The notes under the pieces: model-generated
What the model was told of the DNA's origin: nothing
Database searches by the model: none
The model's input: the letters and a program-made list of their open reading frames with translations, nothing else
Shown: piece after piece, positions 1,085-14,010 of the stretch
Layout: the number at the start of each line of letters is the position of its first letter
Numbering within the stretch: position 1 is the first letter of the stretch
IMG/VR virus record: IMGVR_UViG_3300025030_000062
Coordinates: 1-64,000 of that record
Strand: one strand, 5' to 3'
Length of the DNA: 64,000 nucleotides
Origin: a virus
Program-made: the position numbers and the translations under genes

Positions 1085-1603
1085 ATGACCATCTTCTCAG
1101 CAACCGGCCATAGACCAAACAAGCTTTACGACGCCTACCCTGAACGTCATGGTTATGATTTGCTTGTTAGCTACGCTGAGTATTGCTTGAAACTGAATAA
1201 CGTTTTGATCATGGGAACTGGCATGGCTCTTGGTTGGGATATGGCTGTTGCTCAAGCTTGTTCTAATCTGCGAATTCCTTATGTTGCTTGCATTCCGTTC
1301 CAAGGCCAAGAATGCCAATGGTCGAAGCGCAGTCAGGAGTATTACAAGTTCTTAGTTTCGCTTGCGTGTCAAGTTGTTTATGTTTGTGATCCTGGTTATG
1401 CTCCTTGGAAGATGCAGAGAAGAAATGAATACATGGTTGATAATTCAACTAAGCAACTTGCGTTGTGGAACGGTACTAGCGGCGGTACTGGTAACTGTGT
1501 TAAGTATGCTAAGAGTAAGAAGGTTAAAGTTGTGAATTGTTGGGATGGTTATATTTTGGGATTGAGAGCGATGGGGATTGAATTTAAGGGAGGTAGAGAA
1601 TGA
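1085..1603 (+). CDS. SLOG-superfamily protein (YpsA/DUF1273-like)
   Basis: A 172-residue Rossmann-like protein. The N-terminus has the Gly-His-Arg-Pro signature (residues 7-10) and a glycine-rich GxxxGxD-type loop (GMALGWDMAV, about 46-55), both typical of YpsA/DUF1273 SLOG proteins. The family is thought to bind nucleotide-derived ligands such as ADP-ribose derivatives or modified nucleotides; no biochemical role is established for this branch. It overlaps the RtcB start by 4 nt (ATGA), so the two are probably translated together, hinting that the SLOG protein senses or handles a nucleotide in the same RNA-repair or anti-defence context. Confidence 0.75.
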   Translation: MTIFSATGHRPNKLYDAYPERHGYDLLVSYAEYCLKLNNVLIMGTGMALGWDMAVAQACSNLRIPYVACIPFQGQECQWSKRSQEYYKFLVSLACQVVYVCDPGYAPWKMQRRNEYMVDNSTKQLALWNGTSGGTGNCVKYAKSKKVKVVNCWDGYILGLRAMGIEFKGGRE

Positions 1604-2694
1604 TTAAACAAGCACACATATACGCCGAAGTTCTTGAAGATTCAGCAAGAGAACAATTTGAAGATGCAATGAAGCAACCGTTTGTTGTGAAAGGTGCTCT
1701 CATGCCTGACGCGCACCAGGGCTACAGCTTGCCAATTGGCGCTGTTGTTGCAACTAAAGATGTAATAGTTCCTGCTTATATTGGCTACGACATTGGCTGC
1801 GGCGTTTGCGCTGTACCTACAACCTTTAAGCGTGCTGATGTTGAAGCAAATGCTAAAGCTATTTACGAAATGATTTACAAAGTTGTCCCTGTTGGATTTG
1901 CCCACAATCAGAAAGATTCGGTTTGGGATGTAACTTTGCCTTGTTCGCCTACTCTCGGTGATATCTTTGCAAAGAACGGACTGAAACAACTCTGTTCACT
2001 CGGCGGTGGAAATCATTTCATTGAGATTGGTTATGACGAAAGCGATGTGATCTGGATTACTGTCCATTCCGGTTCGCGTGGTATTGGTCATGCTGTTGCT
2101 ACTCACTACATGAAACTTGCTTCAGGCGACGGTAAAGCGCGTGAAGGTCATTTTGGGTTTGATGTTAGTTCGCGTGAAGGTCGGGATTACATTACTGATA
2201 TGAACTTTTGCTTGGCGTTTGCTTTGGAGAATAGGATTCAGATTGCAAATCGTGTTGCGCGAGCAATTAAAGAATTCTGTGACGGTTATTGTGAACCAGG
2301 AGAGCTTATCAACCGCAACCACAATCACGCTGAACTGAAAGATGGTCTTTGGATTCATCGCAAAGGTGCTACTCATGCTGAAGCGGGAATGATGGGCGTG
2401 ATCCCTGGTAATATGCGTGACGGTTCGTTTATCGTGCGTGGTAAAGGTAATCCTGACGCTCTTTGGTCTAGTTCGCATGGTGCAGGCCGTGTTAAAGGTC
2501 GGAAGCAAGCTCAGCGCGAAGTTAAGCTTGAGGATTTTGCTGAAACGATGATTGGCATAACTGCTAATGTGGGTAATAATACTTTGGATGAATCGCCTTT
2601 TGCTTATAAGAATATTTATGATGTGATGAAGCAGCAGAGCAATATGGTTGAGGTTATTCATCATGTTAAGCCTATTGTTAATTGTAAAGGATAA
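1600..2694 (+). CDS. rtcB: RtcB-type RNA-splicing ligase
   Basis: A 364-residue RNA ligase that joins a 2',3'-cyclic phosphate (or 3'-phosphate) end to a 5'-OH end using GTP and Mn2+. The family motifs are all present in order: DAHQGY (37-42), DIGCGV (64-69, metal ligand Cys67), GGGNHFIE (His139), HSGSRG (His156, the same 17-residue spacing as the E. coli ligands), NRNHNH (238-243) and SSSHGAGR (290-297), whose His293 should be the guanylylated residue. It is somewhat shorter than the E. coli enzyme (about 400 residues) but complete. In a phage the likely job is resealing tRNAs or other RNAs cut by host ribonucleases. ATG 1600 overlaps the SLOG stop. Confidence 0.95.
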   Translation: MIKQAHIYAEVLEDSAREQFEDAMKQPFVVKGALMPDAHQGYSLPIGAVVATKDVIVPAYIGYDIGCGVCAVPTTFKRADVEANAKAIYEMIYKVVPVGFAHNQKDSVWDVTLPCSPTLGDIFAKNGLKQLCSLGGGNHFIEIGYDESDVIWITVHSGSRGIGHAVATHYMKLASGDGKAREGHFGFDVSSREGRDYITDMNFCLAFALENRIQIANRVARAIKEFCDGYCEPGELINRNHNHAELKDGLWIHRKGATHAEAGMMGVIPGNMRDGSFIVRGKGNPDALWSSSHGAGRVKGRKQAQREVKLEDFAETMIGITANVGNNTLDESPFAYKNIYDVMKQQSNMVEVIHHVKPIVNCKG

Positions 2695-2922: not shown

Positions 2923-3677
2923 CAAACCCCTACATACTCTCCAATGACATATTCAAGTCCAGTGAACTAATGGCAATGAAGCTCAAAGAGCGAAAGAGCG
3001 CGGGTTTACCTTTCGACGCGCTTAGACCTGGATACAGTTTCTATGTCAAGATAACAGATATGTCAGAAGCTGCTTTTCGTAGTATGGTAAGTGCTACTTC
3101 TACTCGACATAGAAGGGCGTACAAATGTATCAAGCATAAAGAGCGAGATGTGTTTGAAGTGACTGTTGTTAGTGATGTTGAAATTGAATCGAAACTTGAA
3201 ATGTACGAATCGTCGGCTAAAGCTAAGAACTTGGTCAGACTAGGTAAGCAAGGCCGAAAGATTTATCATTTTGATGTTCTCGAAGAAGGTTACAGTTTCT
3301 CTTATTCTATTGAGGGTAATAGCGAAACTGCTCTTAGGACCGCTTGTAGTTTGTGGTCTAAGAAATTAGGTGTTAGATTCAATTTGTTCAGGCATGATGA
3401 ACTTGGTATCTTCGAGGTTGCGCGGCTTAAACCTTCTCAGCTTACGCATGATCAGCCTATTCCTAGTTCAGCGCGTGCTCTTGCTTATAGAGGTAGGTAT
3501 GATATACCTGAACCTAAACCTAAGCCAGAAATAAAGTTTGAGTATAAATCAGGGCCGTCTCCTATGCTTGTGCCTCTTGTGCCTGAACCGAAGGTTGAGC
3601 CTGAACCACCTCCTGTAGTAAAGCCTGAACCACCACCCAAACCCATGCCTGCTGTTGAATTTTGGAGTGATAAATGA
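2919..3677 (+). CDS. Tandem small-domain protein (DUF7303-like) with Pro-rich tail
   Basis: A 252-residue protein holding two copies of a compact domain that starts with LPFDALRPGYSFYV (about 30-43) or FDVLEEGYSFSYSI (about 118-131) and ends in a (Phe/Tyr)-x-Cys-x-x-His/Phe-type strand leading to F-E-V. The same pattern (PFDxLxxGxSF ... RKFxC/V ... V-x-R-I/L) occurs in the genes at 3674 and 8473, so this is a lineage expansion. Residues from about 195 are Pro/Glu/Lys-rich and probably an extended linker. Start is GTG overlapping the previous stop. It resembles the small phage family DUF7303 of unknown role; DNA or RNA binding is my guess. Confidence 0.7.
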   Translation: MTNPYILSNDIFKSSELMAMKLKERKSAGLPFDALRPGYSFYVKITDMSEAAFRSMVSATSTRHRRAYKCIKHKERDVFEVTVVSDVEIESKLEMYESSAKAKNLVRLGKQGRKIYHFDVLEEGYSFSYSIEGNSETALRTACSLWSKKLGVRFNLFRHDELGIFEVARLKPSQLTHDQPIPSSARALAYRGRYDIPEPKPKPEIKFEYKSGPSPMLVPLVPEPKVEPEPPPVVKPEPPPKPMPAVEFWSDK

Positions 3678-9117: not shown

Positions 9118-9187
9118 TTAAATGAAGTAAGATTATTTGCCTATACTTCGGCCAAATTATTTAACCTTTAATTGGAGATAAAACCCA

Positions 9188-9346
9188 ATGAAAACCGAAA
9201 TTAAAAACGCAATCAAGCTGTTGGCTCAGAAGATTACTGGTGATGTGAAGGCTGATGAAGCATTGAAGTTCACGCAAGCTGCATTGAATCTTGCTCATGT
9301 AAGTCAGCTTGTTGTTCAGACCAAGATTGTTGAAGGAAAGAACTGA
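9188..9346 (+). CDS. Small helical protein, 52 aa
   Basis: ATG 9188 after TTGGAGA, 52 codons, ending TGA 9344-9346. Lys/Ala-rich amphipathic helices and no Cys. It resembles small highly expressed phage proteins of unknown role. Its last codons overlap the first helix strand of the structured RNA region that follows. Confidence 0.6.
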   Translation: MKTEIKNAIKLLAQKITGDVKADEALKFTQAALNLAHVSQLVVQTKIVEGKN

Positions 9347-9669
9347 GTCAGCACGGAAGGACGTGCGAGATAGCCTTGTGAAAAGACCTCAACCGGATAA
9401 AGCCGTTGGATGGTTCAGTAAACAAGGGTAGCATGTTTGAACAACACGGAACAGGTATCAAGCCCTGTACTCAGTTTAAGCTTTAAACGCCTCGCCGAAC
9501 CTTGAAGATGCTGGTGTTGTTTGGTGCTGTAGGCTTGACCTACAGAGGTAAGGTAGCCGTTTCGCGTTGCGGTCTTATCTGAATATGTAGCGCGGGGCTG
9601 AAAGCCGGGTCACTCGTAAGAAGGCTTGACTTTGCCAGTTTCAGAGTAAATTGGTTGTAGTTTGATTTG

Positions 9670-9761
9670 CAGCAAGTAGCTCAGCGGATAGAGCGTTCGG
9701 CAATTCGTTTTTACGAATGCAGTAATCTGAAAGGTCGTTGGTTCAAATCCAATCTTGCTGC
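9670..9761 (+). tRNA. tRNA-like domain with hairpin insertion in the anticodon arm
   Basis: Canonical pieces: acceptor CAGCAAG (9670-9676) with CTTGCTG (9754-9760), D arm GCTC-AGCGGATA-GAGC (9679-9694), T arm GTTGG-TTCAAAT-CCAAT (9737-9753), 5-nt variable region AGGTC. The anticodon stem TTCGG (9696-9700) pairs with CTGAA (9727-9731), but the loop is 26 nt instead of 7 and contains a 6-bp hairpin ATTCGT/ACGAAT (9703-9718). No U33-anticodon arrangement can be placed, so no isotype is given. Flanking ATTTG and CAAAT extend the acceptor stem to 12 bp. CCA is not encoded. It may be a tRNA mimic or a tRNA with an intron-like insert rather than a decoding tRNA. Confidence 0.6.
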
Positions 9762-9960
9762 AAATTGTTCAGGTTGCGCGGATTCATTAAAGGAAGATCA
9801 GAGCAGTCTTCGCCTGAATAGTAACAGAAGTTAGTTGAAGGTGTTTGCCGCAACGATTTACTGTTTCAAATCGCTAGTACAGTGAGGGCATGATTCGAAG
9901 TTTGAAATATAACCAAATAGCCGAAAAGCCTTTGCATGAGCGACCTGACTACTAGCAACG

Positions 9961-10005
9961 AACCCGCTTTGACAGATTAAAACCTGTTAAAGCGGGTTTT
10001 CTTTT
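9961..10005 (+). terminator. Strong rho-independent terminator
   Basis: AACCCGCTTT (9961-9970) pairs perfectly with AAAGCGGGTT (9989-9998), continued inward by ACAG/CTGT, and is followed by TTCTTTT. It ends the structured RNA region just before the next promoter. Confidence 0.85.
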
Positions 10006-10014
10006 GCCGAACTC

Positions 10015-10043
10015 TTGACATTCATGATTAAGATTTGTTAGAG
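10015..10043 (+). promoter_or_regulatory. sigma70-type promoter for the lysis block
   Basis: -35 TTGACA (10015-10020), 17-nt spacer, extended -10 TG-TTAGAG (10036-10043). It lies directly after the terminator and 42 nt before the first start codon of the lysis region. Confidence 0.6.
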
Positions 10044-10084
10044 TGTTGCCGCAAGCTCCAAAACTTTAGTTTAAGGAGATTCTA

Positions 10085-10197: not shown

Positions 10198-10389
10198 ATG
10201 CCGCCGCAAACTGAAGAATTTAGTCGTGAAAGTGTTAATGCTCTTGTATGTCCTGCTCTTAATATTCTTAGAGCTATTGAACTTGATTTAGCGGGTTGTG
10301 ACTGTATTTATAAGCCGAAGATTCGCAATGCTACTGATAACTTGCTTAAGCTAATGACTCTTGCTAAACGAGGTGATTTGAATGGCTAA
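10198..10389 (+). CDS. Hypothetical protein, 63 aa
   Basis: Strong RBS CAGGAGG 9 nt before ATG 10198. Predicted helical, no transmembrane segment and no domain recognised. It overlaps the endolysin start by 8 nt, so translation is probably coupled. Confidence 0.65.
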   Translation: MPPQTEEFSRESVNALVCPALNILRAIELDLAGCDCIYKPKIRNATDNLLKLMTLAKRGDLNG

Positions 10390-12200: not shown

Positions 12201-12653
12201 ATGGCGAACACAAGTCTGAAACCCGCGCATTTGAAAGTAGTGGACAAAGCACATGCTCACATGTACGACTATGACAATCCTGAACCGTCTAAGGATTGGC
12301 CTGTTACACCATCTCGCTTGTCACCTAAAGCAGCAGGTATCTTTGAGCGAATGGTATTGCGTATTGCTGAACTTTATCCTCCTTCAGCTTCTCATACCGA
12401 AATTTTAGCAATTTACGCCGAGGCCGAGGAAGATTATCTTGAACTGTCTGCTTACATTAAGTGGAATGGCCGAACTTTCACTACTGAAAATGGACAAATC
12501 AAACCTTATCCTGAAGTAGCAATGAGGAATGAAGCTAAGAATACGATGGAAAAGATACTTAAGGAGTTTGGTCTAAGTCCTGCTTCGTCGCGTAATGTAA
12601 AAGTAACCAAGCGTCAAGAGAAGCGTAACAGCTTTGCGGATTTGGATGATTGA
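12201..12653 (+). CDS. terS: Terminase small subunit, P27 family
   Basis: A 150-residue protein with the P27-type layout: LSPKAAGIFERM helix (about 41-52), a central helical pair, 'TTENGQIKPYP' turn (about 93-103) and the C-terminal FGLSPASSRNV motif (about 123-133). The small terminase recognises the packaging site and stimulates the large subunit. It lies between the HNH gene and, after an inserted homing endonuclease, the large terminase. Confidence 0.88.
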   Translation: MANTSLKPAHLKVVDKAHAHMYDYDNPEPSKDWPVTPSRLSPKAAGIFERMVLRIAELYPPSASHTEILAIYAEAEEDYLELSAYIKWNGRTFTTENGQIKPYPEVAMRNEAKNTMEKILKEFGLSPASSRNVKVTKRQEKRNSFADLDD

Positions 12654-13077: not shown

Positions 13078-14010
13078 ATGAATGAAGACTTCAAGTTAAA
13101 AAGTACAAAATGTAAAGATAGACCTACTTATATTTATATTTGTTGTGATCCTAACACTTCAGAATGTAGATACGTTGGTAAAACCATTCGTTCTGTGGAT
13201 TACAGAATCAAAGCTCATGTTAAAGACCTATCTTTAAATCATAGAGCTAATTGGTTTAGACATGTTGGTTTTCCTGACTATTTTGTAGTTGAAATTGTTC
13301 CTCCTGGTGGTGATTGGATCGAAGCCGAGCAATTTTGGATTGCCTATATGAAGAGTTTAGGAGCAAATCTTGTTAATATGACAATAGGGGGTGAAGGTCT
13401 TTCTGGTTGGAATCATTCTGACAAAACTAAACACAAAATCAGGTTAGGCCATTTAGGTAAAAAGAAAGGTCCTATGCCCGATTATCATAAATTTAAAATT
13501 AGTTTAGGAGGTAAAGGTAAAAAACGTTCGGCTGAGACATGCACCAAACTAAGTATTGTTAACACAGGAAAAAAGATAGCTCCTGAAGTTATAGCTAAAA
13601 TAAAAGCCAGTAAAAAAGGTAAAGTTCCTGTGCTGTCGGAAGAGGGACGTGCTAAAATTGTAGCCGCAGGTAGAGCTAGAAAAGGAGTTGCTTTATCTGA
13701 AGAAAGAATAGCAATTATTGCAGAAACTAATCGAAGAAGATGTACCGGTGTGAAGCAGACGCCTGAACACGTTGCTAAATGCGCAGCGGCTAGAACAGGC
13801 CATGAGGTTTCACAAGAAACGCGTGATAAAATAAGTCGCGCTAACAAAGGTACTAATCATAGAGAAGGTACTCGCCATAGCGAAGAGACTTTGGCTAAAA
13901 TGTCACAGTCTGCGAAAAAGAGAGGTGCTTTACAAAGAGCCAAAAGGGAAGCAGAGCTTTTAGCTTTTTTCAGCATGACCGAACCTATTGAATGGTGCGA
14001 AAATGAGTAG
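13078..14010 (+). CDS. GIY-YIG homing endonuclease
   Basis: A 310-residue mobile endonuclease. The GIY-YIG module occupies about 17-100: TYIYI, CRYVGKT (30-36), Arg43 and the catalytic Glu in EAEQFW (82-87). The C-terminal two thirds is a string of NUMOD3-like DNA-binding repeats (Gly-Lys-Lys ... Ser-x-Glu-x-x-x-Lys-Ile), as in intron- and intergenic homing enzymes. Its stop overlaps the large terminase start, so it appears inserted into the conserved interval between the two terminase genes. Such enzymes cut related phages lacking the insert. Confidence 0.9.
   Translation: MNEDFKLKSTKCKDRPTYIYICCDPNTSECRYVGKTIRSVDYRIKAHVKDLSLNHRANWFRHVGFPDYFVVEIVPPGGDWIEAEQFWIAYMKSLGANLVNMTIGGEGLSGWNHSDKTKHKIRLGHLGKKKGPMPDYHKFKISLGGKGKKRSAETCTKLSIVNTGKKIAPEVIAKIKASKKGKVPVLSEEGRAKIVAAGRARKGVALSEERIAIIAETNRRRCTGVKQTPEHVAKCAAARTGHEVSQETRDKISRANKGTNHREGTRHSEETLAKMSQSAKKRGALQRAKREAELLAFFSMTEPIEWCENE

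What the first reader, a model, noticed from the sequence alone, without database searches (positions are those of the whole stretch)
9341..10005. Large structured noncoding RNA carrying a tRNA-like domain
About 660 nt between the 9188 gene and a strong terminator hold no convincing gene but many nested helices, an 8-bp closing helix for the first domain, and a tRNA-like domain whose acceptor stem continues outward to 12 bp, so the tRNA body is built into the larger fold. Giant ornate phage RNAs (GOLLD, ROOL) lie near or contain tRNAs and form large multimers; this could be a new member or a new class. Short helices alone can occur by chance.
Basis: partly seen in the sequence, partly recalled or inferred. 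Interest (0 to 1): 0.85.

Follow-up and report, generated by a model that had tools for sequence, protein, structure and literature searches.

The report
Phage RNA built from tRNA-shaped modules
This virus carries a non-coding RNA with two tRNA-shaped domains, one of which belongs to a widespread family of phage RNAs, absent from the RNA family library, that keeps a nearly constant tRNA-like frame while swapping what sits where the anticodon arm would be.

Summary
The anatomy is real, and it led away from GOLLD/ROOL. Window 9342-9475 folds as a tRNA-shaped cloverleaf: 7-8 bp acceptor-like helix, D-like arm, a ~84-nt insert in place of the anticodon arm, and a T-like arm abutting the acceptor strand. 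The insert is 78-82% identical to phages with quite different acceptor, D and T stems. One such element lies inside the tRNA array of a 155-kb phage; others lie between Q and the lysis genes of prophages. The core of this element family covaries strongly: 9 of 16 pairs change on both sides, 0/500 shuffles. Its arm sequence occurs in 213 phage records, among them P1 (two copies), HK620 and D3. Rfam 15 has no match. 53 distinct elements carry 32 unrelated insert types, and nearby tRNAs cluster on the same strand. The second domain (9665-9765) is a tRNA body with a 12-bp acceptor stem, a hairpin in the anticodon loop and no CCA; one other phage, next to such an element, has a similar design. The linkers between domains fold no better than shuffled sequence, so one giant ornate fold is not shown. 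Likeliest role (inferred): a trans-acting tRNA mimic carrying an exchangeable module, perhaps a decoy for tRNA-directed host defences. No expression data.

The parts
9341..9476 (+). Domain I: tRNA-shaped element. Acceptor-like helix 9341-9348/9469-9476, D-like arm 9351-9366 (GCACG-GAAGGA-CGTGC), insert 9367-9450 in place of the anticodon arm, T-like arm 9451-9468 (ACAGG-TATCAAGC-CCTGT) directly abutting the 3' acceptor strand
   Evidence: MFE cloverleaf; 0/60 shuffles score as high; 81% identity over 78 nt to E. coli/Klebsiella prophage elements, E 1e-8; 78% over 100 nt to L102
9367..9450 (+). Conserved insert module of domain I (GAGATAGCC...CCTCAACCGGxTAAxGCCGxTGGATGG...TTGAAC)
   Evidence: Shared by L102, L103, L002, L062, L066 although acceptor, D and T stems differ
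9665..9765 (+). Domain II: tRNA body with 12-bp acceptor stem (9665-9676/9754-9765), D arm 9679-9694, hairpin inserted in the anticodon loop, canonical T arm 9737-9753, no 3' CCA
   Evidence: Rfam tRNA 48.5 bits; ARAGORN calls it tRNA-Thr(cgt) although the anticodon arm holds an inserted hairpin; similar architecture in L052 next to a family element
9477..9664 (+). Linker between domains I and II, structure uncertain
   Evidence: MFE z-score -0.28 for 9476-9660
9766..9959 (+). 3' linker, structure uncertain
   Evidence: MFE z-score -0.38 for 9771-9958
9960..9999 (+). Terminator-like hairpin with T-rich tail; likely 3' end of the RNA
10015..10044 (+). Promoter-like site TTGACA-18-TAGAGT, candidate start of the next (lysis) operon
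   Evidence: 10 of 12 matches, but shuffles average 2.0 such sites in the region
9188..9346 (+). 52-aa ORF just upstream; stop codon lies in the acceptor-like helix
   Evidence: no PHROG match

Best explanation
The region encodes a phage non-coding RNA with at least two tRNA-shaped domains. Domain II is a tRNA body altered so that it should not decode: extended acceptor stem, hairpin in the anticodon loop, no CCA. Inferred mechanism: the RNA is transcribed with the late region and acts in trans as a tRNA mimic. Tertiary contacts and RNase P-type processing make it stable, and the module engages a factor that normally handles tRNAs, most plausibly as a decoy for tRNA-directed host defences or as a modifier of translation. 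Shown by computation: shape, homology, covariation, linkage to tRNAs. Inferred: expression, processing, trans action, target.
For: Covariation in 32 members with the window left out: 98% of cells pair, 9 of 16 pairs change on both sides, 0/500 shuffles, slid controls far lower. Domain I cloverleaf beyond shuffles. Insert homology at E 1e-8 across changed stems. 53 elements fall into 32 insert types on one frame. Of 18 tRNAs in the tallied bins around 66 elements, 16 lie within -500 to +1000 nt and all are on the same strand. In HC6 the element and tRNA-Ile sit between oppositely oriented genes, and in L102 inside a tRNA array, which favours a trans role. The window phage also encodes an RtcB RNA ligase, consistent with a tRNA-damage setting but no proof.
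Against: No transcript data. Model R1 does not find the window domain: its loops diverged and its insert is long. The D-like/T-like loop complementarity of the main family (GCTGAT/ATCAGC) is lost in the window and L102. Most elements have no detectable tRNA within 700 nt (56 of 66). No tRNA-repair gene is annotated in the stretches read around the P1 and HK620 copies. The decoy step has no direct support.
Confidence: 0.5

Rival explanations
1. Cis-acting late leader: the elements sit in the 5' leader of late transcripts and act as antitermination or RNA-processing signals for the downstream lysis and packaging genes.
For: In HK620 the element lies between the annotated pR'/qut and the tQ terminator; in phiEt88 and the Klebsiella/E. 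coli prophages it lies between Q and the lysis genes; in Aeromonas phage 2_D05 just before terL; in the window just before endolysin, terS and terL.
Against: Elements inside the tRNA array of a 155-kb phage, beside early genes in Burkholderia CSP3 and facing convergent genes in HC6. In the window a terminator follows and a new promoter-like site begins.
Confidence: 0.22
2. GOLLD/ROOL-like large RNA that self-assembles into a multimeric cage.
For: Similar length and association with tRNA islands (Nature 2025, PMC12286853). Complementary D-like and T-like loops in most family members could also pair between molecules.
Against: No Rfam GOLLD or ROOL match. Linkers fold no better than shuffles. 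Loop complementarity is absent in the window. Elements occur alone as units of about 75-260 nt.
Confidence: 0.1
3. Decaying tRNA island: degenerate tRNA genes with no function.
For: Domain II is a tRNA that should not decode; other odd tRNAs occur nearby in some loci.
Against: Strong covariation of the core and a conserved insert across phages whose stems have been replaced require selection.
Confidence: 0.08
4. A bacterial Y RNA (YrlA-like) that tethers an Rsr/nuclease complex.
For: YrlA also mimics tRNA and lies beside rsr/rtcBA (PMC7790460); the window phage has rtcB.
Against: YrlA model finds nothing in G000 at E<=10. R1 finds nothing in true YrlA loci. In YrlA the T-like arm comes before the D-like arm, the reverse of this element.
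Confidence: 0.03

Closest known systems
YrlA bacterial Y RNA (Rfam RF02553)
   Same: Non-coding RNA with a tRNA-mimicking domain, found next to rtcB
   Different: Order of the D-like and T-like parts is reversed; no cross-match between models
GOLLD and ROOL RNAs
   Same: Large phage RNAs often near tRNA islands, function unknown (PMC12286853)
   Different: No match in Rfam 15; this RNA is made of small tRNA-shaped units
tmRNA
   Same: tRNA-like domain with a large insert where the anticodon arm would be (own knowledge)
   Different: ARAGORN finds no tmRNA; 32 unrelated inserts; D-like arm is a full stem; usually no encoded CCA
Phage-encoded tRNAs (Rfam RF00005)
   Same: Domain II scores as tRNA; some elements sit among phage tRNAs
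   Different: Domain II has a 12-bp acceptor stem, a blocked anticodon loop and no CCA; domain I has no tRNA score
Lambdoid pR' late leader RNA / put-type RNA antiterminators
   Same: Genomic position in HK620-like phages
   Different: Also found outside late leaders; resemblance to put sites was not tested

Membership tests
GOLLD or ROOL RNA | Match to the Rfam covariance models | tested here: not met
   Only tRNA at gathering score; neither among matches at E<=10 on 9180-10060
GOLLD or ROOL RNA | Homo-oligomeric cage | not testable with these tools
   Needs native gel or cryo-EM
YrlA Y RNA | Match to RF02553 | tested here: not met
   0 matches in G000
YrlA Y RNA | YrlA order of tRNA-like parts and match to the present family | tested here: not met
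   R1 gives no match in L132-L134; YrlA has the T-like arm first
Functional tRNA | Rfam tRNA model | tested here: met
   Domain II 48.5 bits, cut-off 29
Functional tRNA | 7-bp acceptor, free 3' CCA end, 7-nt anticodon loop | tested here: not met
   12-bp acceptor, no CCA, hairpin in the anticodon loop
Present phage tRNA-like element family (core model R1) | Cloverleaf with T-like arm abutting a covarying acceptor helix | tested here: met
Present phage tRNA-like element family (core model R1) | Sequence homology to members | tested here: met
   81% over 78 nt, E 1e-8; 78% over 100 nt to L102
Present phage tRNA-like element family (core model R1) | Detection by core model R1 | tested here: not met
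   No hit in the window; the model was built with trimmed inserts and scored its own divergent member L102 only 18.8 bits
Present phage tRNA-like element family (core model R1) | Complementary D-like and T-like loops (GCTGAT/ATCAGC) | tested here: not met
   Window loops GAAGGA and TATCAAGC are not complementary; L102 shares this variant

The most novel reading that the evidence does not exclude
A distinct class of phage RNA: a tRNA-shaped scaffold that displays fast-turning, exchangeable modules, made in arrays with tRNAs and pseudo-tRNAs, and used in trans against host systems that act on tRNA or translation. The 660-nt RNA of the window would be a multi-domain version of it.
Probability: 0.35. 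Interest if true: 0.88.

Novelty: new variant of a known kind. Interest (0 to 1): 0.72.

Why it matters
Laboratory phages such as P1, HK620 and D3 appear to carry this element, not annotated as an RNA in the records read here (P1, HK620), so its expression and role can be tested directly. A constant tRNA-like frame with many unrelated inserts is the pattern expected of an arms race or a modular cargo, and it bears on why phages carry tRNA islands and odd 'undetermined' tRNAs.

Tried and rejected
GOLLD, ROOL, group I/II introns, tmRNA and riboswitches: no Rfam match. YrlA: rejected. Relatives of the whole RNA: nothing in the phage collection beyond short matches to tRNA genes; an exact pattern from the domain II 3' half gave no viral contig. 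TerL and endolysin relatives: the closest, L109, breaks off at the terminator, and the others have no similar RNA at that place. The R1 search of the window failed. A 26-nt match in a podovirus exonuclease gene was set aside as chance. The loop-loop pairing between D-like and T-like loops shows no changes on both sides and is not claimed. The Kuttervirus match lies in the HK620 insert only; R1 finds no element there. Library searches found no description of the element, but subscription journals are not held.

Full report
Observation. The stretch 9341-10005 has no ORF of 60 aa or more on either strand and ends in a 16-bp terminator-like hairpin. Two tRNA-shaped cloverleaves are present. Domain I, 9342-9475, folds without constraint into a 7-bp acceptor helix (8 bp with the outer A-T pair), a D-like arm, a long arm in place of the anticodon arm, and a T-like arm that abuts the acceptor strand. 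A cloverleaf scan finds only this and the tRNA body; domain I scores 44 against a best of 37.8 in 60 shuffles. Domain II, 9665-9765, scores as tRNA but has a 12-bp acceptor stem, a hairpin in the anticodon loop and no CCA. The linkers fold like shuffled sequence, so the claim of one large ornate fold is not upheld. The energy z-score of the whole (-5.4 over 9342-9999) appears to come largely from the two domains and the terminator. In the MFE of the whole stretch domain I is not closed; it closes when folded alone.

Homology of domain I. The insert of domain I is 81% identical over 78 nt to sequence between Q and the lysis genes of E. coli and Klebsiella prophages, and 78% over 100 nt to an element inside a tRNA array of a 155-kb phage, L102. 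In the E. coli record a hypothetical protein is annotated across part of it. The acceptor strands are ACTGAGT/ACTCAGT in the window, TGTGGTG/CACCACA or CACCACT in the prophages, and AGCGGT/ACCGCT in L102. They differ in sequence but pair in each, as do the D-like and T-like stems, apart from a mismatch in the D-like stem of the L002 type. The window and L102 share the T-like loop TATCAAGC.

The family. The prophage elements belong to a much larger set with the core GTGAATGC-CAGGCTGAT-GC ... GCCGG-AGATCAGCA-CCGGC-CAC. A pattern scan of IMG/VR gave 87 stretches, and the arm sequence occurs in 213 phage records of Klebsiella, Escherichia, Pseudomonas, Aeromonas, Erwinia and others, including P1, HK620, HK629, HK633 and D3. 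In 32 aligned members (window excluded) 98% of cells pair, 9 of 16 pairs change on both sides, and no shuffle reaches this; the acceptor-like helix carries most of it. The model R1 recovers P1 (two copies), HK620, HC6, phiEt88, Kintu and CSP3 and finds 14 of 198 genomes of one Enterobacteriaceae sample. In unconstrained folding 35 of 51 members show all three arms. Rfam 15 gives no relevant match.

Frame and module. 53 distinct elements carry 32 unrelated insert types, 31 to 174 nt long, while the frame is nearly invariant. The members were found with a pattern that fixes part of the frame, so its invariance is partly by selection; the insert diversity is not. Within the window's type the insert is conserved although the frame has been replaced. 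This indicates a functional module rather than drift.

Link to tRNA. Of 18 tRNAs found in the tallied 500-nt bins around 66 distinct elements, 16 start within -500 to +1000 nt, and all 18 are on the element's strand. Canonical T arms are enriched in the same way. Some tRNA-like bodies lie inside the insert (L046, L098). The tRNA in L052, next to an element, has an extended acceptor stem and an extended anticodon arm like domain II. In P1 a tRNA-like body with an extended stem precedes the first element (sequence).

Setting. The window phage (94.9 kb) has RtcB at 1600-2694, endolysin at 10382, terS at 12201 and terL at 13988. The RNA therefore sits at the head of the late region, as in HK620, phiEt88 and Aeromonas 2_D05. 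Other carriers place it in tRNA arrays, beside early genes or against convergent genes, which argues for action in trans.

Mechanism. The identity of domain I as a tRNA-shaped member of this family is well supported (I would put it near 0.85). The further claim, that the RNA is a trans-acting tRNA mimic whose module engages a tRNA-handling factor, is inference. The decoy version fits the arms-race pattern of the inserts and the RtcB gene, but nothing tests it directly. A cis late-leader role is the main rival.

Limits. R1 misses the window domain, and the complementary loops seen in most members are not present there. No homolog covers the linkers or domain II of the window. Alignment A1 used inserts trimmed to 16 nt. 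Paper searches cover open-licence texts only.

Noticed in passing
L095 2925-3600 (phage P1, OP279344 about 65550-66230): Largely unannotated stretch after tRNA-Asn and tRNA-Thr with two family elements and a tRNA-like body with a 10-bp acceptor stem; an annotated hypothetical CDS (3167-3340) lies between the two elements.
   Followed up: partly
window 1085-2694: Phage-encoded RtcB RNA ligase (1600-2694), preceded by a YpsA/SLOG-family protein (1085-1603).
   Followed up: no
window 13078-14010: Homing endonuclease with NUMOD3 motif between terS and terL.
   Followed up: no
L046 5788-5920, L098 3995-4132: A tRNA-like body lies inside the insert of the element (nested tRNA in a tRNA-like frame).
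   Followed up: partly
L052, 101 nt upstream of the element: tRNA body with acceptor stem extended by 8 pairs whose outer part is the element's own 5' acceptor strand, so the two folds compete.
   Followed up: no
G107 (genome of the Enterobacteriaceae sample): Seven R1 matches at scattered places in one chromosome.
   Followed up: no
L109 1-431: Closest relative of the late region; its contig ends at the terminator of this RNA, as an assembly break at a sequence shared between phages would give.
   Followed up: no
L096 2978-3063 (Salmonella phage GG32): Annotated 'tRNA-Undet' that resembles the insert of the HK620 element, although R1 finds no element there.
   Followed up: no
NZ_CP079635.1 (L002): A 1.04-Mb circular record filed as a Klebsiella plasmid with only 5 annotated features carries a prophage region; the record may be mislabelled.
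   Followed up: no
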